64,000 nucleotides of DNA. Origin: Vagococcus zengguangii. Lineage in GTDB: Bacteria; Bacillota; Bacilli; Lactobacillales; Vagococcaceae. Below the pieces are notes generated by a model. It saw only the letters and a list, made by a program, of their open reading frames with translations. It had not been told where the DNA came from and searched no databases. Positions 29,160 to 39,311 of the stretch are shown piece by piece. Location of the stretch: contig NZ_CP039712.1 of assembly GCF_005145005.1 (NCBI RefSeq), forward strand, positions 62,001 to 126,000, in the 5' to 3' direction. The translations under genes were made by a program, and so were the position numbers. Numbering within the stretch: the stretch's first letter is position 1; each line of letters starts with the position of its first letter.

Positions 29160-29552
29160 TTGGCTAAAGTACAATACAGCGGCACTGGCCGTCGTAAAAG
29201 ATCTGTAGCGCGCGTACGCTTAGTACCAGGTACAGGTAAAATTATTATGAACAATAAAGACATCGAAGAATATATTCCACATGCTGACCTACGTGAAGTA
29301 GTTAACCAACCATTTGCGGTTACTGACACTAAAGGTGCATATGACGTTTTAGTTAACGTTAACGGTGGTGGATATGCTGGACAAGCTGGCGCAACTCGCC
29401 ACGGTATCGCTCGTGCGTTACTACAAGTTGACCCAGACTTCCGCGCTCCATTAAAACGCGCTGGATTATTAACACGTGACTCTCGTATGGTTGAACGTAA
29501 AAAACCAGGTCTTAAGAAAGCACGTAAATCTTCACAGTTCTCAAAACGTTAA
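29160..29552 (+). CDS. rpsI: 30S ribosomal protein S9, rebuilt by the integrated element
   Basis: 130 aa. S9 reaches the P-site tRNA with its C-terminal Lys-Arg tail (SSQFSKR). The start codon is TTG after AAGGAGGG, rare for a ribosomal protein. The last 16 codons and stop lie inside the 52-bp repeat that marks the left end of the mobile element, so this C-terminus was supplied by the element on integration; the host's original end is at 37712-37763. Coding sequence is intact. Confidence 0.97.
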
Positions 29553-29553
29553 T
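29502..29553 (+). repeat. attL: 52-bp direct repeat in the rpsI 3' end
   Basis: Identical over 52 bp to 37712-37763, running from AAACCAGG to the stop codon and two more bases. It marks the left end of the integrated element; the two copies are 8210 bp apart. Confidence 0.95.
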
Positions 29554-29744: not shown

Positions 29745-30623
29745 GTGAAAGACATTGTGGTAGAATGGTTAGAATATTGTGATTTGAATGGTATTAAGCC
29801 TTGGGAGTATGATTTTAAAAATGAAGTATTGATTGAAGGGAATAGTTTAAATCAAAATCCAATAGTAAGTATATTTGAATGGTATATAAATAAATCAAAC
29901 AAATTTTTAGTAGGAGTAGAAATAGAAAATACTGATTTAGCATCAGAAATTTATAGGCTTTTATGGGAGATTAATGAAGATGCAATGTCAAAAAAAAGAA
30001 GTTCATTAGATAGGGATGTTATGAATTCTTTTTGGAATATTTATAAAGCCGATATAAAATTAAGTTATGGTTTATATCTAAATAAATGGAGCGACAATAA
30101 AATAAATGAAAAAGCTATACAGTTTTTAATAGACAATTACCCTACTTATATTTCTACAAATAATAGAATTTTTCTCTATTCTAAATACACCCATACAATT
30201 GGAAATTTTATCATTGAAACTAAAGGATTTAATATGGGAAGAAAGCAAAATGATTATTGGGATCTAGCTTTAAAATTATTGTATGATTTTTTTAAAATAA
30301 TGGATAAAGATGTATGGATAAAATTTATTGATACATTCATGTTACATTCATTTGTAAATAGTGATTATTCTTTATCGTATTATTGGGATAGAAATAATAA
30401 TGATTTAGGACCAAATAATGAAGAGGAAATAGTACGATTTTTAAGAATTTCCACTAAATCAATTGAACAACGTGGCAAACAAATGATTAAAAAAATATGC
30501 GAAGATAAAAATAAAATAGAATATAAGTTTTATAAAAATTATTTGGTGGATTTAGAAGTGAAATATGCGGAAGATATCAAAAAAGAGTTTGAGGAGGAGT
30601 TATCTAATGCCGAGAGTAAATAA
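29745..30623 (+). CDS. Element-encoded protein of unknown function
   Basis: 292 aa from a GTG after AGGAG. No signal peptide or membrane segment. It is rich in aromatic residues and has a central block, YTHTIGNFIIETKGFN ... DYWDLALKLLYDFF, a pattern I associate with an uncharacterised family of bacterial cytoplasmic proteins (the DUF6994 type, from memory). The C-terminus is a charged helix. It is the first gene inside the element, under the palindrome-controlled promoter, and overlaps the next gene by 17 bp, so the two are coupled. Function unknown; a host-interaction or defence role is only a guess. Confidence 0.75.
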   Translation: MKDIVVEWLEYCDLNGIKPWEYDFKNEVLIEGNSLNQNPIVSIFEWYINKSNKFLVGVEIENTDLASEIYRLLWEINEDAMSKKRSSLDRDVMNSFWNIYKADIKLSYGLYLNKWSDNKINEKAIQFLIDNYPTYISTNNRIFLYSKYTHTIGNFIIETKGFNMGRKQNDYWDLALKLLYDFFKIMDKDVWIKFIDTFMLHSFVNSDYSLSYYWDRNNNDLGPNNEEEIVRFLRISTKSIEQRGKQMIKKICEDKNKIEYKFYKNYLVDLEVKYAEDIKKEFEEELSNAESK

Positions 30624-31089
30624 AACAGTTCGTTTAGCTTACGAAACAAAGTTATGGATAGACGAGCTAATAAGTAAAAAAGAATTAGAGTTAAGAGAAG
30701 AAATTAATAAGGGATTAATACCTAAGTTAGAGAAACATTTATTTGAGAATAGTACGGATATACTGAATGGTGTATCTTGTAACGTAGTGCTAAAAGTTAC
30801 AAGTGGAAGTATAATTGAACAAGCATACCGAAATACTAGACACTATACTAATGATGAATGGAAAAAAGTAGTGAGAAATATGGAAAGAAGTTTGAAAGAA
30901 GTAAATATGTATAAAGAAACAACTGTAACTCCTAGATTATATTTAGATGAAGATATTTTAACGGCGTTAGAATCCTACCAGGATGAATGGCGTTCTAAAG
31001 AACCAGGAAAAAGATTAATTAAATTGAGTTATGTAATAAAGGTAGTAGTATTTGCTGATTATTATAATAACTTTAACAAGAATATATAG
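30607..31089 (+). CDS. Putative ribbon-helix-helix DNA-binding protein
   Basis: 160 aa; the start MPRVNKTVRLAYETK at 30607 follows GAGGAGG. Two segments have a short strand followed by two helices: NKTVRLAYETKLWIDELI near the N-terminus and VTPRLYLDEDILTALESYQ through SYVIKVVVFADYY at the end. This resembles two ribbon-helix-helix units. Such a protein could bind the GTGTTAACAC operators that flank this two-gene unit, or act in a relaxosome. Overlaps the preceding gene. Family assignment is tentative. Confidence 0.7.
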   Translation: MPRVNKTVRLAYETKLWIDELISKKELELREEINKGLIPKLEKHLFENSTDILNGVSCNVVLKVTSGSIIEQAYRNTRHYTNDEWKKVVRNMERSLKEVNMYKETTVTPRLYLDEDILTALESYQDEWRSKEPGKRLIKLSYVIKVVVFADYYNNFNKNI

Positions 31090-31122: not shown

Positions 31123-31137
31123 TATTTGTGTTAACAC
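31123..31137 (+). promoter_or_regulatory. Second copy of the palindromic operator
   Basis: TATTTGTGTTAACAC matches 29681-29695 exactly; GTGTTAACAC is at 31128-31137. The first GTG of the downstream reading frame lies in this palindrome, which argues that it is a regulatory site and not the translation start. No strong -10 is placed as in the first copy. Confidence 0.55.
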
Positions 31138-31166
31138 TAAACGATTATGTAGAGGGGGTAAGGGTA

Positions 31167-32501
31167 TTGTTTAAAAGAAAAGAATGGATTGAAGTAGTAT
31201 ATCCAAGAAGACATCATTTAGGATTACTGTTTCTATATTTGATTTTTGTTTTTATTAATACCTCACTGATAGGAAAAGCAAATGGTTTATTATCGGTAAT
31301 TTTATTATTAATGAGTATATATATGCATTATAAATTAGTTAAGGTATATATGAAACGTAATAAATCAAAGAGTAAGATGATAGAACGACAAATACAATAT
31401 ATGATTCATACATTAAATTTGTATGATGAAGAGTATGTTGAAGTTACGAAAAATAATAAAGCTAGTATGGAAAAAAAGATATGTAGAGTTATAAGAATTT
31501 ATTATAAGTTGGACCATAGAAAAGTGTATGTAAGGGTATATCGTGATGGGGATAGATTTACTAAAATATCTAGTTCTAAAGAGTTTTACGAAAGTTTAGA
31601 AGCAGCTTTGGGGATGGAATTAGAAAAAGCTATAAAGAATATAAGATATATAGAATTTTCGTTTTTACGATATAAAGATAAGAGAATAAATGTATCGACT
31701 GGAACTAAACTATCGCAAGGTACTAAGGTCATGATTACCGAATCTTTGAGTTATGATGTTTCTAAAGTTAGTCATGGTTTAACAGTAGGTTCAACAGGGT
31801 CTGGAAAAAGCTTTTTTATTAATTCTAAAATATTGGCGTATGCACAGATGTCAGATAAGAAATATAACTCATGGGATGGAGCAGATATTAGGATTTGTGA
31901 TCCTAAGGCTAGTGATTTGTATCTGTATAAATTTGTTACAGGCTTTGGACCAGAAAAAGTTGCGTGTGAACCTAATTTAATTGCAAAAATGATTAGGGAA
32001 GTTTCTGAGTTAGTTGAAAAACGGTATAGAGAAATGTTTAATGATATTTCTTCTTTTGGTAAGACATTTGTAGATTTTAGAGGATATCCACCAGTAGTAA
32101 TATTTATAGACGAATATGCGGCATTAATGAAGACGGTAGACAAGAAGAATAAAGAGGAAATAGAAAAACATTTATATAATATTGTGTTAAAAGGGCGTGG
32201 ATGCGGTGTTTTTGCAGAAATAATTTTACAACGTCCTGATGCTTCAATTATTCCTGGACAAATACGTGACCAACTTCAAGTTAGAACAGGGTTATCTAAT
32301 TTGTCGCAAGAAGGAAAACAAATGTTGTTTGGTTCTACCGATATAGAATATAAAACAGTAAATGTTAAAGGAGGTGGTTATATTTTTATTGATTCAGTTA
32401 CAGAACAACCAGTTTATTTTGAAACGCCATTTATTTCAAAAGACTTTGATTTTTTGGATGAGATAGACAAAATTTATAAAAAGAGATTAGGTATAAATTG
32501 A
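31167..32501 (+). CDS. FtsK/SpoIIIE-family ATPase, TcpA-like coupling protein
   Basis: 444 aa from the TTG at 31167. Two hydrophobic segments (HHLGLLFLYLIFVFINTSLIG and LLSVILLLMSIYMHY) anchor the N-terminus. The P-loop GSTGSGKSFF is followed by Walker B VVIFIDEYAAL and LQRPDASIIPGQIRDQLQVR, as in FtsK/TcpA proteins. In mobile elements such ATPases deliver the relaxase-DNA complex to the mating channel. AGAGGGGG (31151-31158) fits TTG 31167; an earlier in-frame GTG (31128) lies in the operator palindrome. It resembles Orf21 of Tn916 in role and position. Confidence 0.88.
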   Translation: MFKRKEWIEVVYPRRHHLGLLFLYLIFVFINTSLIGKANGLLSVILLLMSIYMHYKLVKVYMKRNKSKSKMIERQIQYMIHTLNLYDEEYVEVTKNNKASMEKKICRVIRIYYKLDHRKVYVRVYRDGDRFTKISSSKEFYESLEAALGMELEKAIKNIRYIEFSFLRYKDKRINVSTGTKLSQGTKVMITESLSYDVSKVSHGLTVGSTGSGKSFFINSKILAYAQMSDKKYNSWDGADIRICDPKASDLYLYKFVTGFGPEKVACEPNLIAKMIREVSELVEKRYREMFNDISSFGKTFVDFRGYPPVVIFIDEYAALMKTVDKKNKEEIEKHLYNIVLKGRGCGVFAEIILQRPDASIIPGQIRDQLQVRTGLSNLSQEGKQMLFGSTDIEYKTVNVKGGGYIFIDSVTEQPVYFETPFISKDFDFLDEIDKIYKKRLGIN

Positions 32502-32633: not shown

Positions 32634-32948
32634 ATGAAATTAAACGATTTTTTAAAAGCGGATTTATTAGGAAATAAATTTTTAGCAGTAAAGGGATACG
32701 CTGAGGTGTTAGATAGAGAAACAGAACAATTAGCAGCGTATCGATTGAATGTATCTATTCAAGATGAATCTAGTGATTTCTTTATGGAAATGATTCAAGT
32801 TAAAGTAAATAATTTACATCCTACTGTTAGTGTAGAAGAATTAAAAAATAATAGAACAATGGGAGTTGCTTTAAAAGATTTGAATGTAGGGCAATTTAAT
32901 GGGAATTTGTGGTTTTCATGTACTGATGTACTACCAGTAACTAAATAG
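32634..32948 (+). CDS. Small element-encoded protein, possible OB-fold replication accessory
   Basis: 104 aa, acidic, alternating hydrophobic pattern consistent with an all-beta protein (FLAVKGYAEVLDRETEQLAAYRLNVSIQD; NLWFSCTDVLPV). No Cys pairs. In Tn916- and ICEBs1-like modules, small proteins beside the relaxase help the helicase or bind single strands; this occupies the same place but I see no decisive motif. AGGAAGAGG precedes the ATG. Confidence 0.7.
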   Translation: MKLNDFLKADLLGNKFLAVKGYAEVLDRETEQLAAYRLNVSIQDESSDFFMEMIQVKVNNLHPTVSVEELKNNRTMGVALKDLNVGQFNGNLWFSCTDVLPVTK

Positions 32949-33128: not shown

Positions 33129-33137
33129 TTGATTTTG

Positions 33138-33947
33138 ATGAACTATTATAATCAAAGAATTGTTCATACCGGACCATATGTTGAAATATGGGATTATGAA
33201 AAGTCTATTAGTCTAAACTCTGATACTATTGAGGGTGAAAAAGTTGAGATTGGAGAATCAAAAAATAAAAATCAGAAGAGAAAATCATTTGACGAATTAG
33301 ATGAGCAAGAGCAACATGAAAGACTAAGAAGAATGAATAAAACTAGATTAGATGCAAAATGGAGATTGTTAAGGATTGTTGACTGTAATTTTGATAATAG
33401 TACGTCTTTTTTAACTTTGACTACAAAAGAAAATATTGTTATACGTGATGAGTTTACAAATATGTTTAAGAAGTTTGTTAAAAGATTCAATTATCATGTA
33501 TATAAAACTAAGAAGAGTCAGTTAAAGTACATAGGTGTACTGGAGAGGCAGAAGAGAGGTGCTTGGCATGCACATGTATTATTATTCAGTGTGCCATTTG
33601 TTGAACACAATAAGTTATTAGGGTTATGGGGACACGGAGCTATTAGGATAAATAAATTAGATCATTTGGATGACTTATCAAATGCTGGTCGCTATGTTGT
33701 AAAGTATATGGAAAAAGGTATAGGTCAAGAACTAGTTGAAAGTTTTGGGAAAAAGGCATATTTGTATTCTAGAAATCTAAGTAAGCCTATAGAATCTAAA
33801 ATGTATTTAGATAAACCATTGGATTTAGAAAAGTCTGTAGTTTTGTATGAAACAGAATATGAGGGGAAAATATTCAGAGGGGGCCATTTAGTTAATAACA
33901 AGGTTAGGTATAGAAAAGTATTACTTACTAAGGAAGATGAAAAATAA
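33138..33947 (+). CDS. HUH-type Rep-like protein, candidate relaxase/replication initiator
   Basis: 269 aa. FLTLTTKEN (motif 1), AWHAHVLLF with the metal-binding His-x-His (HUH) and NAGRYVVKYMEKG with the Tyr-x-x-Lys-Tyr catalytic pattern define a rolling-circle initiator of the plasmid/phage Rep type. It lacks the features of a classical MobA or MobP relaxase. It would nick DNA at an origin by forming a tyrosine-DNA link. In streptococcal IMEs such Rep-derived proteins act as relaxases beside TcpA-like ATPases, as here. ATG 33138 is preferred over an upstream TTG (33129). Confidence 0.85.
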   Translation: MNYYNQRIVHTGPYVEIWDYEKSISLNSDTIEGEKVEIGESKNKNQKRKSFDELDEQEQHERLRRMNKTRLDAKWRLLRIVDCNFDNSTSFLTLTTKENIVIRDEFTNMFKKFVKRFNYHVYKTKKSQLKYIGVLERQKRGAWHAHVLLFSVPFVEHNKLLGLWGHGAIRINKLDHLDDLSNAGRYVVKYMEKGIGQELVESFGKKAYLYSRNLSKPIESKMYLDKPLDLEKSVVLYETEYEGKIFRGGHLVNNKVRYRKVLLTKEDEK

Positions 33948-34304: not shown

Positions 34305-35534
34305 CTGGCAATTACAAAAAATAAAAGTGGAACTTATAGAGTGGAAGTTTATTATCCTAAAGAGGTTCAAGAAATTACTGGTGTGAAAGGAAGATATAAA
34401 AAAACTTTTAAAACGCTTAGAGAAGCTAAAGAAGATGAGAAAAAGATACTAGAAAAAATACAAAGAGTGATACAAGAAAAAAATTCTAGAGCGTTGGAAA
34501 TAAAAGGTAATATTAAATTTAAAAAGTTTTATGAAGAGATATGGTTGGATATGTATAAGAGTGGGTCAACAGGAAGAACAAGACAGATACCAAGTAACGT
34601 AACAGTTCAAAATACGAAAGATATATTTCGAATTCATATTTTACCTATGTTTGGTGACTATTCAATAAACTGGCTTAATGAGAATAAAGAATTTGTTTTA
34701 AGACAATTAACGGCATTATCTCAAACCTATGCCAATATTAAAATTGTAAAAGGATATGTTAATCAGGTTTTTGAAATGGCAGAATTACTTGATTACATTG
34801 AATATAATCGAATAGAAAAAGTAATAAGATATGTTTCAGCTCCTAAAAAACAAAAGTTAAAAGAAGAACGTGAATTAGTAGGGGAATCGATGACAGCTCG
34901 AGAACTTATTGAATGGTTAGACGTAGTAAATAATGAATACAATGAAGGAATATTGAGTATGCAAGATTATGTTTTATTTATGCTTACTTTGAATATTGGG
35001 GATCGTAAGAGTGAAAGCTATGCTTTACAGTGGAAACATATAGACTTTGAGAATGGCTATATATTATTAACACAAAATTTATCAAAAGTTGGAAACCTTA
35101 AGTCAACAAAAGGCAAGAAAAATACCAAAATTGCAATACCTTCATTTTTGATAGAGTTATTAAAAGAATGGAAAGAGTATCAAAAAATAGAACTGAAACA
35201 AATTGATATTAAACAGACTAAGGAACAATTCCTATTTACTTATGTTAATGGTAAAGGAGAAATTAACGTACCTGTACATATTGATTATTTAAATTATCGT
35301 TTGAATTCAATTCGTAGAAGAAATCCTGATTTAGTAAAATTAAATCCTCATAAATTACGACATACTTATTCAACCCTGGCAAGAGAAGGAGGAGCGTCTA
35401 TGAGTGAAATTTCAGAGGCTCTAACACACTCTGACACTAAGATAACTGAAACGTATGTAAATACTCCTAATATAGTTAAATTATCAATGTACGAGAAATT
35501 TGAGGGTAGATTAAATGAGGAGCGTAGAAAATGA
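34305..35534 (+). CDS. int: Tyrosine recombinase (integrase), probable CTG start
   Basis: 409 aa. The N-terminal AITKNKSGTYRVEVYYPKE fits an arm-binding domain; a SAM-like core-binding domain (about 70-180) and a catalytic domain with Arg (IGDRKSESYALQW), NPHKLRHTYS, LTHSDTKITETYV and nucleophile Tyr follow. In-frame ATG is absent near the start. CTG 34305 lies seven bases after GGGGG (34293-34297); the next option, GTG 34341, has no ribosome binding site and would truncate the N-terminal domain. Integrates site-specifically into rpsI. Confidence 0.92.
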   Translation: MAITKNKSGTYRVEVYYPKEVQEITGVKGRYKKTFKTLREAKEDEKKILEKIQRVIQEKNSRALEIKGNIKFKKFYEEIWLDMYKSGSTGRTRQIPSNVTVQNTKDIFRIHILPMFGDYSINWLNENKEFVLRQLTALSQTYANIKIVKGYVNQVFEMAELLDYIEYNRIEKVIRYVSAPKKQKLKEERELVGESMTARELIEWLDVVNNEYNEGILSMQDYVLFMLTLNIGDRKSESYALQWKHIDFENGYILLTQNLSKVGNLKSTKGKKNTKIAIPSFLIELLKEWKEYQKIELKQIDIKQTKEQFLFTYVNGKGEINVPVHIDYLNYRLNSIRRRNPDLVKLNPHKLRHTYSTLAREGGASMSEISEALTHSDTKITETYVNTPNIVKLSMYEKFEGRLNEERRK

Positions 35535-35553: not shown

Positions 35554-35769
35554 ATGAAGACTTTGTTAGTTGGAGATATACATTTAAAAGTACGTCTAAT
35601 TTTACCAATCATAGAAATAAAAACATAAGAATTAAAATGTGAAGAAATCATATTTACAGATGCTTATGTGGATGATTATTTTCAGGGGTTTTATGTTAAT
35701 CTATTTATAGATGATTTAAATTATTTATTGAACTGGAAACAAAAAATGGAATCTAAAGGAATTAATTGA
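35554..35769 (+). pseudogene. Broken metallophosphoesterase gene
   Basis: The frame begins MKTLLVGDIHLK, the first metal-binding motif (GDxH) of calcineurin-like phosphoesterases, but meets TAA after 24 residues. The same frame continues as ELKCEEIIFTDAYVDDYFQG and NLFIDDLNYLLNWKQKM, consistent with the family, then stops again before the GNHD motif. It has both an in-frame stop and a lost 3' part, so it is non-functional. AGGAGAG precedes the ATG. Confidence 0.7.
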
Positions 35770-35789
35770 AAAGGTGAGGGACTTAAATA

Positions 35790-36143
35790 ATGAAAAAAAT
35801 AGGCATATTTTTTATTAACAATAATGAGATTATTGTTGATTCAATCTCTTATGAGGAAGGTAGATATTTAAATGGTTTATATGATAGTAATGCAGACCAT
35901 TGGCAATTATTTGACTCTCTTTCTTATAAATTTAATACAGACGATTATATTGATGTGCCTCGAGGAAGAGTGATTTATAATGAAATCAGTGATAATAGTA
36001 TTATTTATCTAGATAAGTGCTTTTTATCAAATGATGAAGTATTGGATAAAATTATTGAAGTGTTTGGAATAGAAAAATATGTATTAAAGGCAGATATTCA
36101 TTATCAGTGCCCAAATTGTTTAGAAGATATTTGGAAAGACTAG
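35790..36143 (+). CDS. Small protein of unknown function with a C-terminal CPNC motif
   Basis: 117 aa, acidic, no membrane segment. The C-terminal YQCPNCLEDIWKD has one Cys pair that might bind metal on dimerisation. It is the first intact gene of the right-hand cargo. I do not recognise the family. Confidence 0.65.
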   Translation: MKKIGIFFINNNEIIVDSISYEEGRYLNGLYDSNADHWQLFDSLSYKFNTDDYIDVPRGRVIYNEISDNSIIYLDKCFLSNDEVLDKIIEVFGIEKYVLKADIHYQCPNCLEDIWKD

Positions 36144-36168
36144 AAAAAATCGAAATGGGGAAAATAGA

Positions 36169-36612
36169 ATGAAATATTTATTATTAGATATAGATGATAC
36201 GATTGCACCTTTAAAAGTTGGTGGTCCAGATATGGTTATAATTGATAGTATGGGAATGGAGTTGGCTATTCCTCAATATATAGCTGATTGGCTAAAGAAA
36301 GCATCTGAAAAGGATATTAAAATTTATTGGTGTACAGACCGTCCGCCTATCCTTGGCTATTTAATTCAGAAAACTATAGGTTTTGAAACTGAAGGACAAT
36401 TAGAATTCTATAATACAAAAGCTTATGAATGGAGTAAACTTTACGGAATAATAGAATTTTGTAATGAACATGAGAATGACTTAGTTGTGTTAGCCGATAA
36501 TCTTGTGGAAAGAATGACTAAAGGTGTTGAATTACCAAGTAATTTGAAAACAGTTTTACCGTCAGACGCAACATTAACTATTGAAGATTTGAAAATTATT
36601 GATAGCCTATAG
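36169..36612 (+). CDS. HAD-superfamily hydrolase
   Basis: 147 aa. LLLDIDDTIAP is motif I with both catalytic Asp residues; YWCTDRPP carries the motif II Thr; VVLADN is a plausible motif IV. The cap domain is minimal, which usually allows large or macromolecular phosphate substrates, such as nucleic acid or protein ends. Substrate unknown. It lies 25 bp after the preceding gene with a GGGG-type site. Confidence 0.72.
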   Translation: MKYLLLDIDDTIAPLKVGGPDMVIIDSMGMELAIPQYIADWLKKASEKDIKIYWCTDRPPILGYLIQKTIGFETEGQLEFYNTKAYEWSKLYGIIEFCNEHENDLVVLADNLVERMTKGVELPSNLKTVLPSDATLTIEDLKIIDSL

Positions 36613-36627
36613 AATTGAAGTTAAAAA

Positions 36628-37251
36628 ATGAAAGATATGGGTTATGAGCTATATGATTATGTTAAATTCAAGACTAAAGAAAAGAATATTATTGGATATG
36701 TAGTCAGTAAGTATTTTAATGGTGAAGGAGTCATTCATTTTTATGATATATATTCTGAAATAGAAGAAGCTTATATTAATCATGTTCCAGAGTCAGAGTT
36801 ACATTTATTAGCTAAATCAAATAGTATGGCATGTAAAGCATTGAAATTAGCCGTTAATGTGCATAAAAATCAAGTAGATTTAGTCGGTGAGCCTTATATT
36901 AACCACATTGTTGCAGTAGGGGAAAAGGTAAAAAAATTTAAGGATGATGATTTGCTAACAGTTGCATATTTACATGATATTTTAGAGGATACGTATATAA
37001 CAGAAGATATCTTAAGATGTATATTCCCTGATGATATTGTAGATGCTGTTAGAAGCATCACTAAATCTGATAAGTATCAACCTTATGAAGAATATATACA
37101 AATTGTTAAGCTAAATGAATTATCCAGGATTGTAAAATTGGCAGATTTAGAACATAATTTAGTACTATCTAGGATAAAAGATTATACTTCCAAAGACTTA
37201 TTAAGAATAAAGAAATATAGAAAAGCAGTAAAAGAATTATCAAATCTGTAA
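36628..37251 (+). CDS. HD-domain phosphohydrolase, SpoT-like
   Basis: 207 aa. Residues about 1-65 form a small beta-rich N-terminal domain. The rest is an HD hydrolase: GEPYINHIVAVGE, AYLHDILEDT with the HD pair, and VKLADLEHNL. This is the pattern of (p)ppGpp hydrolases of the SpoT/MESH1 type, but without synthetase or regulatory domains. The substrate could be ppGpp or another nucleotide. 15 bp from the HAD gene. Confidence 0.75.
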   Translation: MKDMGYELYDYVKFKTKEKNIIGYVVSKYFNGEGVIHFYDIYSEIEEAYINHVPESELHLLAKSNSMACKALKLAVNVHKNQVDLVGEPYINHIVAVGEKVKKFKDDDLLTVAYLHDILEDTYITEDILRCIFPDDIVDAVRSITKSDKYQPYEEYIQIVKLNELSRIVKLADLEHNLVLSRIKDYTSKDLLRIKKYRKAVKELSNL

Positions 37252-37270
37252 TAATAGAGGATGATATCTA

Positions 37271-37561
37271 GTGGATAAATTTAAGTTACGTTATATTTGT
37301 GAGAATTGTGGGAAAATTGGTTTGTATCATAACGCAGAAGAAGCTCATGAAGAAGGATGGGATTACCCTCCTAAAATCGGAGAATATGGCGTTATAGGAC
37401 CTAGAACTTGCGGAGAATGTGGTATAGATACTACACTATATTGGGCAATAATTACTGATGAAATTAAAGAACTTTCTCAAATGACATTGAAGCAAAAAGC
37501 AACCTTTAATAGAATTTTACATGAACCAGCCAGTATTATTATAAGTGATCTTAATGAGTAG
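37271..37561 (+). CDS. Zinc-ribbon protein of unknown function
   Basis: 96 aa from a GTG. Two Cys pairs, CENC and CGEC, about 35 residues apart suggest one zinc. Between them is EEGWDYPPKIGEYGVIGPRTC, a compact ribbon rather than a DNA-binding array. It ends the cargo unit 150 bp before attR. Confidence 0.65.
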   Translation: MDKFKLRYICENCGKIGLYHNAEEAHEEGWDYPPKIGEYGVIGPRTCGECGIDTTLYWAIITDEIKELSQMTLKQKATFNRILHEPASIIISDLNE

Positions 37562-37711: not shown

Positions 37712-37763
37712 AAACCAGGTCTTAAGAAAGCACGTAAATCTTCACAGTTCTCAAAACGTTAAT
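37712..37763 (+). repeat. attR: host copy of the rpsI 3' end
   Basis: Perfect copy of 29502-29553. It is the original end of rpsI, displaced by the insertion. The following 20 bases differ from those after attL. Confidence 0.95.
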
Positions 37764-37858: not shown

Positions 37859-37897
37859 CCCCCAAAAAGTTAGACCAAAAAATCTAACTTTTGGGGG
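37859..37897 (+). promoter_or_regulatory. Hairpin at the IS left end covering the orfA ribosome binding site
   Basis: Arms 37859-37874 and 37883-37897 (one bulge), then TATTTTTT. The 3' arm contains GGGGG, the ribosome binding site of orfA, so transcripts entering from outside would fold and hide it. Confidence 0.65.
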
Positions 37898-37905
37898 TAT
37901 TTTTT

Positions 37906-38472
37906 ATGGTGAAATATGATGAAGAATTTAAAATGAAAGTAGTTATAGATTATTTAAAAGGCTATGATGGTTATCAATATTTAGCTAATAAGTACCAAAT
38001 TAAAAATAAATCTCAAGTTGAGCATTGGATACGTACTTATAAGGAATTTGGTGAGTCTGGACTACGTCGTAGTCAAATAAATAAAAGTTATTCTGTTCAA
38101 TTTAAGTTAGATGCGATAGAGTTATATGAAACAAGTGGAAAATCCTATCGTGAAATTAGCAACGGTTTAGGAATAACAAACTATTCTCTTTTAGCTGGAT
38201 GGGTAAAAAAGTTCAGAGAGAATGGCATTCAAGGACTTTCCAGTAAGAAAGGTCGACCAACTAATATGCCTAAAAAAACTAACAAATCAGCAGCATACCC
38301 AGCTAATCAAACAGATCAAGAGCGGATTGAAGAATTAGAAAAACGAGTTCGCTCATTAGAAATACAGAATGCCTATTTAAAGGAATTGAGGAAGCTAAGA
38401 AAAATGGAAGCCCAACAACAAATGAAACACTTGCGAAAATCATCCATAGCCTCCGAGGACAATTCAAATTAG
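37906..38472 (+). CDS. IS150-like transposase OrfA
   Basis: 188 aa. Two helix-turn-helix units (residues about 10-60 and 65-115: YQYLANKYQIKNKSQVEHWI; YREISNGLGITNYSLLAGWV) bind the inverted repeats, followed by a leucine-zipper-like coiled coil (RIEELEKRVRSLEIQNAYLKEL). ATG 37906 lies eight bases after GGGGG. Its 3' end overlaps the orfB frame, where an A-rich stretch (about 38398-38404, AAGAAAAATG) allows -1 shifting. Confidence 0.88.
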   Translation: MVKYDEEFKMKVVIDYLKGYDGYQYLANKYQIKNKSQVEHWIRTYKEFGESGLRRSQINKSYSVQFKLDAIELYETSGKSYREISNGLGITNYSLLAGWVKKFRENGIQGLSSKKGRPTNMPKKTNKSAAYPANQTDQERIEELEKRVRSLEIQNAYLKELRKLRKMEAQQQMKHLRKSSIASEDNSN

Positions 38473-39311
38473 TTGAGCTTCTAACAGAGTTAGAATTCCC
38501 AAAAGCTACTTATATGTATTGGCAAAAACGTTTTGAAATGGATAATCCAAAGAAAGAATTAGAGGAAGAAATTACCAGTATTTTTTATGAACATGAAGAA
38601 CGATATGGTTATAGACGTATTACCAACGAACTTAAAACTCGAGGAAGAACGGTTAACCATAAAAAAGTTTTGAGAATTATGAAGAAATTAGGATTGAAAG
38701 TCATTAAGTTTATGCGTAAGTCTCGTAAATATAGCTCATATAAAGGTAAAGTAGGGCTAATAGCAAAAAATAGAATTCACAGAAAATTCTATACGTCTAT
38801 CCCTCATCAAAAAATCACAACTGATACAACGGAATTCAAATACTATGAAAAAAATAATGGGATTTTAACCGTTAAAAAACTCTACTTAGATCCCTACTTA
38901 GACATGTTCAATAGCGAAATTATTTCTTACGCTATTTCTAATCACCCGAACGCAAAATCGATTGAGCAAGCTCAATTAGCAGCTATTGAACGAACAAGCG
39001 ATTGTCCCTATCGTCGAACTTTCCATTCTGATCAAGGATGGGCTTATCAAATGAAAAATTATTCTAAATGTCTAAAGGATAATAAAATATTCCAAAGTAT
39101 GTCCCGTAAGGGAAACTGTTTAGACAATTCTCTAATGGAAAATTTCTTTGGGTTATTAAAGCAAGAAATGTATTATGGTAAAGTCTTTCATAGTTTTGAA
39201 GAATTAAAAGAGGCAATAGAAAAATGGATTCACTACTACAATCATAAGAGAATTAAAGTGAAATTAGATGGTTTAAGCCCAGTGGCTTATCGACTAAAAT
39301 TAGCTGCATAA
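38376..39311 (+). CDS. IS150-like transposase OrfB (DDE integrase), made by -1 frameshift
   Basis: The orfB frame is open from about 38376, upstream of its first ATG (38514), and lies -1 to orfA; the product is probably the OrfAB fusion. Conserved catalytic features are TDTTEFKYY (first Asp), HSDQGWAYQ (second Asp) and RKGNCLDNSLMENFFGLLK (Glu). HTH_21-type segment EERYGYRRITNELKTRG near the start. Intact, so the IS may be active. A hairpin (39321-39326 / 39339-39344) follows the stop. Confidence 0.82.
   Translation, partial: FKGIEEAKKNGSPTTNETLAKIIHSLRGQFKLVELLTELEFPKATYMYWQKRFEMDNPKKELEEEITSIFYEHEERYGYRRITNELKTRGRTVNHKKVLRIMKKLGLKVIKFMRKSRKYSSYKGKVGLIAKNRIHRKFYTSIPHQKITTDTTEFKYYEKNNGILTVKKLYLDPYLDMFNSEIISYAISNHPNAKSIEQAQLAAIERTSDCPYRRTFHSDQGWAYQMKNYSKCLKDNKIFQSMSRKGNCLDNSLMENFFGLLKQEMYYGKVFHSFEELKEAIEKWIHYYNHKRIKVKLDGLSPVAYRLKLAA

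What the first reader, a model, noticed from the sequence alone, without database searches (positions are those of the whole stretch)
35554..37561. Cargo of several phosphohydrolase folds, one already broken
Next to the integrase lie a broken calcineurin-like esterase, a HAD protein, a SpoT-like HD hydrolase and two small Cys-motif proteins, in one direction with short gaps. Three separate phosphoesterase folds together suggest action on nucleotides or signalling molecules such as (p)ppGpp, possibly anti-stress or anti-phage.
Basis: inference. Interest (0 to 1): 0.6.

Follow-up and report, generated by a model that had tools for sequence, protein, structure and literature searches.

The report
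Phosphohydrolase cargo of a mobile element
A small mobile element in a Vagococcus-family bacterium carries a short run of phosphate-cleaving enzyme genes, one of them dead and one resembling enzymes that destroy the toxic nucleotide (p)ppApp, and some related elements carry other mixtures of such genes.

Summary
The genes lie in an 8.26-kb integrative mobilizable element (IME) at the 3' end of rpsI, bounded by a perfect 52-bp repeat. After the integrase come a dead calcineurin-like fragment, a 117-aa orphan protein (C117), a capless HAD protein, a small HD hydrolase and a 96-aa CxxC protein. The HD protein is not best read as SpoT-like: it groups with small (p)ppApp hydrolases (PDB 7smg) and phage Aph1-type proteins, with Asp where Rel has Arg. 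The 96-aa gene is element backbone. Is the mixture random? Each gene also occurs without the others. But the three other intact HAD loci found all have further phosphoesterase genes within 6 kb (5 seen, about 0.2 expected; post hoc), and a related rpsI IME carries two other phosphoesterase genes. My preferred reading is an exchangeable pool of phosphohydrolases that undo toxic or defensive nucleotide or phosphoryl marks, the HD protein being an orphan anti-(p)ppApp enzyme. The family placement is well supported. Substrate, role of the pool and anti-phage action are untested inference.

The parts
29502..29553 (.). left copy of the 52-bp att repeat, at the 3' end of rpsI
   Evidence: perfect 52-bp direct repeat
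37712..37763 (.). right copy of the 52-bp att repeat
29745..30623 (+). 292-aa protein of unknown function inside the IME
   Evidence: no Pfam family, no PADLOC family
30565..31089 (+). 174-aa accessory protein; a homologue (36.5%) lies in the L064 island
31128..32501 (+). FtsK/TcpA-type coupling protein
   Evidence: PF01580 1.2e-13
32634..32948 (+). 104-aa backbone gene, conserved in L062, L063 and L084 (57-70%)
33129..33947 (+). rolling-circle-type Rep/relaxase
   Evidence: PF23343 1.3e-22; 44-62% in L086, L084 and L062
33970..34248 (+). excisionase-like protein
   Evidence: TIGR01764 7.4e-6, just under its cut-off
34341..35534 (+). tyrosine integrase
   Evidence: PF00589 1.2e-19
35554..35769 (+). 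dead calcineurin-like phosphoesterase (N-terminal fragment with internal stop)
35790..36143 (+). C117, orphan 117-aa protein with one CxxC
   Evidence: 66-68% identical copies in L036 and L057, truncated copy in L058; purifying selection
36169..36612 (+). capless HAD-fold protein
   Evidence: model and fold comparison; DxDxT present, Leu112 where the three intact relatives have Asp
36628..37251 (+). small HD hydrolase, (p)ppApp-hydrolase-like, with about 65 extra N-terminal residues
37271..37561 (+). 96-aa protein with two CxxC pairs, IME backbone gene
   Evidence: homologues between Rep and Xis/Int in L062 and L063

Best explanation
The finding is the accessory end of an rpsI-integrated IME. 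Shown: the ends, the mobilization backbone, the gene order, the dead calcineurin-like gene, the HAD fold (as a model), and the HD protein's place among small (p)ppApp-hydrolase-type proteins. Supported by few loci: mobile islands of Lactobacillales exchange phosphoesterases of different folds (calcineurin-like, HAD, HD, EEP, perhaps DSP), so the cargo comes from a shared pool. Inferred: the pool works by undoing products. Each enzyme would remove a phosphate or pyrophosphate mark that a prophage, competitor or host-defence toxin has put on a nucleotide, RNA or protein. [quoted passage not shown] Loss of one member, the calcineurin-like gene, is then ordinary turnover of the pool.
For: Element: 52-bp repeat, integrase, Rep, FtsK-like protein. 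HD: best PDB match 7smg '(p)ppApp hydrolase' 1.1e-25, next RelSeq 1.2e-8; Q-x-D in 19 of 19 small HD proteins against Q-x-R in 3 of 3 Rel-type sequences; that split has 98/92 support; 44-46% identity to streptococcal phage proteins that lie behind a MuF/capsid gene and one small gene, the order published for apk2-iapK-aph1, whose Aph1 protects across toxins (PMC12226406, passages). Pool: the 3 intact HAD loci outside the window hold 5 further phosphoesterase genes within 6 kb, 0.22 expected, Poisson 3.7e-6; rpsI IME L084 with EEP-like and calcineurin-like genes; decayed HAD beside a related integrase at rpsI in L014 and L016; C117 beside a DSP-like gene at guaA. Purifying selection on C117 and HAD.
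Against: Combinations differ in every locus and each gene also stands alone. By eye, 14 of 14 other HD loci (L038-L051) have no calcineurin-like gene within 3 kb. The backbone-baited elements L062, L063 and L086 show no phosphoesterase by eye. The excess is post hoc and falls to Poisson 0.01 without L064. L015, L064 and L065 were not shown to be IMEs. No (p)ppApp synthetase toxin lies near, and the genome has only Rel and one small synthetase. One acidic HAD residue kept in relatives is lost here. Small alarmone hydrolases of another subgroup can be promiscuous (PMC9765508, passages).
Confidence: 0.42

Rival explanations
1. Random cargo: the element picked up unrelated small genes, and phosphoesterases are simply common; each enzyme has its own unrelated substrate.
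For: Each gene occurs apart from the others, combinations are never the same, and one member is already dead. Only few loci carry the set.
Against: Excess of phosphoesterases in the three other intact HAD loci; the two-phosphoesterase rpsI IME L084; a second, broken HD plus calcineurin-like pair in the same genome.
Confidence: 0.3
2. The HD protein is a SpoT-like (p)ppGpp hydrolase that damps the stringent response.
For: Matches RelA/SpoT models (2.4e-16) and keeps HDxxED and KLAD..HN. A promiscuous alarmone hydrolase cleaves (p)ppGpp as well (PMC9765508, passages).
Against: Nearest solved relative is a (p)ppApp hydrolase; the Arg of Rel is Asp here and in 18 of 18 other small HD proteins aligned; it falls on the other side of a supported branch from Rel.
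Confidence: 0.12
3. The pool serves repair or salvage of nucleic-acid ends or ADP-ribose compounds rather than defence against toxins.
For: The HAD model also resembles the T4 Pnkp 3'-phosphatase (Z 8.5) and related enzymes. In G246 calcineurin-like genes flank a TIGR02452 gene (2e-45), whose models touch ADP-ribose-binding proteins. One calcineurin-like protein (L015) hits diadenosine tetraphosphatase and Pnkp models weakly.
Against: HAD folds with Z 8 to 10 cover many substrates. No kinase, ligase or ADP-ribose gene is in the window element. It does not explain the (p)ppApp-type HD protein.
Confidence: 0.1

Closest known systems
Aph1-type (p)ppApp hydrolases of prophage Apk2-IapK-Aph1 modules, and the solved (p)ppApp hydrolase 7smg
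   Same: small HD_4 protein, HDxxED, Q-x-D, 44-46% identity to streptococcal phage copies over about 136 residues
   Different: no Apk2-like toxin or IapK-like gene beside it, about 65 extra N-terminal residues, carried by an IME
IMEs with tyrosine integrase, RCR-type relaxase and TcpA protein (PMC5357655, passages)
   Same: rpsI target, long direct repeat, FtsK/TcpA-type gene upstream of a rolling-circle-type Rep gene
   Different: phosphohydrolase cargo, which I found in no paper searched
SpoT/Rel (p)ppGpp hydrolases
   Same: HD superfamily and metal-site motifs
   Different: Arg replaced by Asp; other side of the tree
Capless HAD phosphatases (MDP-1, Scp1, T4 Pnkp phosphatase)
   Same: fold of the model, DxDxT
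   Different: 8-13% identity; Leu112 where relatives of its own family have Asp

Membership tests
IME of the tyrosine integrase / RCR relaxase / TcpA type | integrase and flanking direct repeats in a known target gene | tested here: met
   PF00589 1.2e-19; 52-bp repeat at rpsI; target and long repeats in PMC5357655 passages
IME of the tyrosine integrase / RCR relaxase / TcpA type | rolling-circle-type relaxase and FtsK/TcpA-type protein | tested here: met
   PF23343 1.3e-22, PF01580 1.2e-13; nicking not tested
IME of the tyrosine integrase / RCR relaxase / TcpA type | excision and mobilization by a helper element | not testable with these tools
   needs an experiment
(p)ppApp hydrolase family (Aph1, 7smg) | closer in sequence to (p)ppApp hydrolases than to Rel | tested here: met
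   1.1e-25 against 1.2e-8; tree split 98/92
(p)ppApp hydrolase family (Aph1, 7smg) | catalytic HD..ED, and Asp at the Rel Arg position (my own marker from the alignment, from no paper) | tested here: met
(p)ppApp hydrolase family (Aph1, 7smg) | hydrolysis of (p)ppApp | not testable with these tools
   needs an assay
Apk2 immunity module | hydrolase gene beside an Apk2 toxin gene and iapK | tested here: not met
   no such gene in the element; only two RelA_SpoT synthetase domains in the genome, Rel and one small synthetase. So it is not filed as an Apk2 module
SpoT/Rel (p)ppGpp hydrolase | Arg at the Rel Q-x-R position | tested here: not met
   Asp in the window protein
HAD phosphatase | Rossmann-like HAD fold with DxDxT | tested here: met
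HAD phosphatase | complete set of acidic metal ligands late in the fold | tested here: inconclusive
   Asp110 kept, residue 112 is Leu where three relatives have Asp
Calcineurin-like phosphoesterase (working enzyme) | GD, GNHD and C-terminal His motifs | tested here: not met
   GD lost and C-terminal part missing in the window copy
Known anti-phage defence system | match to a PADLOC model | tested here: not met
   0 families for 4 of 4 window cargo proteins at E 1; of 10 further proteins only the L064 HD protein gave weak partial hits, 0.0028 and 0.0078

The most novel reading that the evidence does not exclude
IMEs of Lactobacillales carry an exchangeable kit of product-reversing phosphohydrolases (HD, HAD, calcineurin-like, EEP, perhaps DSP) that gives the host general, enzyme-based immunity to toxins and abortive defences acting through phosphoryl or nucleotide marks, an orphan (p)ppApp hydrolase being its most recognisable member.
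Probability: 0.2. Interest if true: 0.75.

Novelty: new variant of a known kind. Interest (0 to 1): 0.45.

Why it matters
If true, small mobilizable elements carry a mixed set of enzymes that reverse toxin products: immunity by chemistry, not tied to one toxin. It makes a direct test possible, since the HD gene should protect cells against (p)ppApp-making toxins. It also warns that proteins annotated 'GTP pyrophosphokinase' or 'SpoT' on mobile DNA may be (p)ppApp hydrolases (annotations seen).

Tried and rejected
Considered and set aside: (1) (p)ppGpp as first-choice substrate. (2) The 96-aa CxxC gene as cargo. (3) Matches of the MPE fragment to Salmonella and Proteus phage proteins (E 0.4): read, those proteins show no calcineurin motifs by eye. 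(4) A PDB profile search with the MPE alignment gave only PPR proteins with no stretch passing on its own: artefact. (5) Homology of the HD N-terminal stretch with the 202-aa L064 protein: E 0.005 only, left open. (6) C117 against the 114-aa L065 protein: none. (7) Relatives in viral contigs: none for HAD, C117, the MPE fragment or Rep; one for HD (L004; its neighbours were not studied). HAD in plasmids and phages: none. C117 in phages: none. The MPE fragment in plasmids: none. (8) HAD profile in one further family: 0 of 76 genomes, no positive control. (9) Promoter-like sites were at chance, 26 found against 25.1. (10) C117 fold: model too poor to search (pLDDT 63).

Rows dropped: in HAD search 15, 8 of 395 genomes matched; G173, G194, G203 and G232 were weak partial hits in long frames and were dropped; G018 and G033 are decayed copies. 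In C117 search 34, 5 of 395 matched; G294 (30%, 3.3e-4) was dropped. Of the 19 HD places I fetched the surroundings of 15 outside the window (L037-L051), not those of G388, G352 and G284. In the background count the window itself was left out as the discovery locus, and L066 is the same locus as L015. For G094 one HD gene was assumed; the expected number quoted uses the own genome. The tallies of neighbours were read partly by eye; labels there such as thymidylate synthase, MuF toxin in L040, HigBA-like, type I R-M and WYL are recalled and come from no call.

Literature: no paper held 'integrative and mobilizable' with 'metallophosphoesterase' and 'cargo' or five of six mixed-fold terms; that is absence in that library only. 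The PNAS 2023 paper on (p)ppApp hydrolases is not held; I know it from citing passages and reference lists and from recall. Papers were seen as passages only.

Full report
The element. The genes of the finding lie in an integrated element bounded by a perfect 52-bp direct repeat, 29502-29553 at the 3' end of rpsI and 37712-37763. Its G+C is 0.285 against 0.383 for the rest of the window. It holds a FtsK/TcpA-type protein, a rolling-circle-type Rep/relaxase, an excisionase-like protein and a tyrosine integrase. This is the layout described for streptococcal IMEs, where rpsI is a target and some rpsI integrases leave long repeats (PMC5357655, passages). The host is in the same genome family as G094, which is Vagococcus fessus: G094 and NZ_NGJY01000003.1 share contig length and gene position.

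The genes. After the integrase come, all on the + strand, a calcineurin-like relic, C117, HAD, HD and the 96-aa gene, with gaps of 161, 25, 15 and 19 bp between them. The relic matches the first 70 residues of full-length Metallophos proteins in three other genomes (4 of 295 genomes including the own one). It has a stop after codon 24 and another at codon 72, has lost its GD motif and lacks the rest of the enzyme. C117 is in no Pfam, NCBIfam, PHROGs or PADLOC family at a meaningful score. It is 66-68% identical to copies in two other genomes, with dN well below dS. The HAD protein is nearly invisible to family models, but its model (pLDDT 89.0) is a capless HAD: MDP-1 Z 10.5, Scp1 9.4, T4 Pnkp 8.5. 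DxDxT is present; residue 112 is Leu where the three intact relatives have Asp.

The HD protein. phmmer against the PDB gives 7smg, '(p)ppApp hydrolase', at 1.1e-25; the next is RelSeq at 1.2e-8. In an alignment of 19 small HD proteins (window, the own second copy, L064, phage, plasmid and chromosomal copies, 7smg) and 3 Rel-type sequences, the Q-x-D/R position is Asp in 19 of 19 and Arg in 3 of 3. A tree parts the two sets with 98/92 support; placements inside the small set are uncertain and long branches were flagged. The streptococcal and Pasteurella phage copies lie behind a MuF/capsid-type gene and one small gene, the order of the published apk2-iapK-aph1 modules. Aph1 hydrolyses pppApp and protects across toxins, though mostly partially in that assay (PMC12226406, passages; see also PMC11699363, passages). 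The window genome has two synthetase domains only, Rel and a small one, so this HD protein would be an orphan. An orphan alarmone hydrolase of another subgroup is promiscuous (PMC9765508, passages), so the substrate must be measured.

The 96-aa gene. Homologues sit between Rep and Xis/Int in two other elements, L062 and L063. I read it as backbone, displaced to the right end here.

Does the mixture recur? The HAD family is rare: the own copy, V. fessus and two decayed copies among 395 genomes (four weak hits dropped), and two more intact copies in the genome collection. The three intact loci outside the window hold, within 6 kb: V. fessus, a calcineurin-like gene; L064 (Lactobacillus MAG, behind guaA), EEP, calcineurin-like and HD genes; L065 (Companilactobacillus), an EEP gene. 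With 13 such genes in 2.19 Mb of the own genome, 0.22 are expected in the three stretches and 5 are seen (Poisson 3.7e-6; 0.01 without L064). This is post hoc and small, and these three loci were not shown to be IMEs.

Other loci point the same way. L084, an rpsI IME with Rep (59%) and integrase (41-52%) related to the window's, carries an EEP-like gene (below the Pfam cut-off) and a calcineurin-like gene. At guaA, L082 has a DSP relic with a calcineurin-like gene and L036 a DSP-like gene (weak, 0.0032) with C117. L014 and L016 have decayed HAD beside a related integrase at rpsI. The own genome has a second HD gene beside a broken calcineurin-like gene at 1.706 Mb. G246 has three calcineurin-like genes and a TIGR02452 gene within about 10 kb.

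Against this: the combinations differ every time and each gene also stands alone. By eye, 14 of 14 other HD loci show no calcineurin-like gene within 3 kb, and the backbone-baited elements L062, L063 and L086 show no phosphoesterase. The supported claim is a loosely shared pool, not a fixed operon.

Mechanism. I hold a product-reversal role most likely (0.42): the HD protein returning (p)ppApp to ADP/ATP, and the HAD protein and, where alive, the calcineurin-like and EEP proteins removing other phosphoryl marks. Only the family placements are shown; substrate, link to toxins and benefit are inferred. Random cargo (0.3) remains a serious rival. Anti-phage action is untested.

Noticed in passing
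own genome G000 C1 about 1706065-1707194 (L037:9315-10078): A second small HD gene (48% to the window's) directly before a calcineurin-like gene that breaks off next to an IS30-like transposase gene.
   Followed up: partly
37891-39311: Two IS3-like transposase genes just outside the right att repeat; relatives are on many Enterococcus plasmids.
   Followed up: no
L083/L090 (G246 C3 465206-475324): Three calcineurin-like genes and a TIGR02452 (ADP-ribose-related) gene within 10 kb, next to genes that look like transcription regulators.
   Followed up: partly
L038, L039, L044, L047: In four streptococcal-looking chromosomes the small HD gene sits beside what looks like thymidylate synthase (label recalled), and in several phages beside thymidylate kinase annotations: a possible nucleotide link.
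   Followed up: no
L064:4406-5014 and window 36628-36820: The extra N-terminal stretch of the window HD protein resembles the C-terminal part of the protein encoded next to HD in L064, at E 0.005 only: possibly a fusion of neighbours.
   Followed up: partly
30565-31089: The 174-aa accessory gene near the left end has a homologue just before the HD gene in the L064 island (36.5%).
   Followed up: no
L086 (NZ_CP091302.1, Enterococcus faecium plasmid): A Rep related to the window's (44%) with DUF3173 and integrase genes is found in 49 Enterococcus plasmid records, so IME-like modules of this kind also ride on plasmids.
   Followed up: partly
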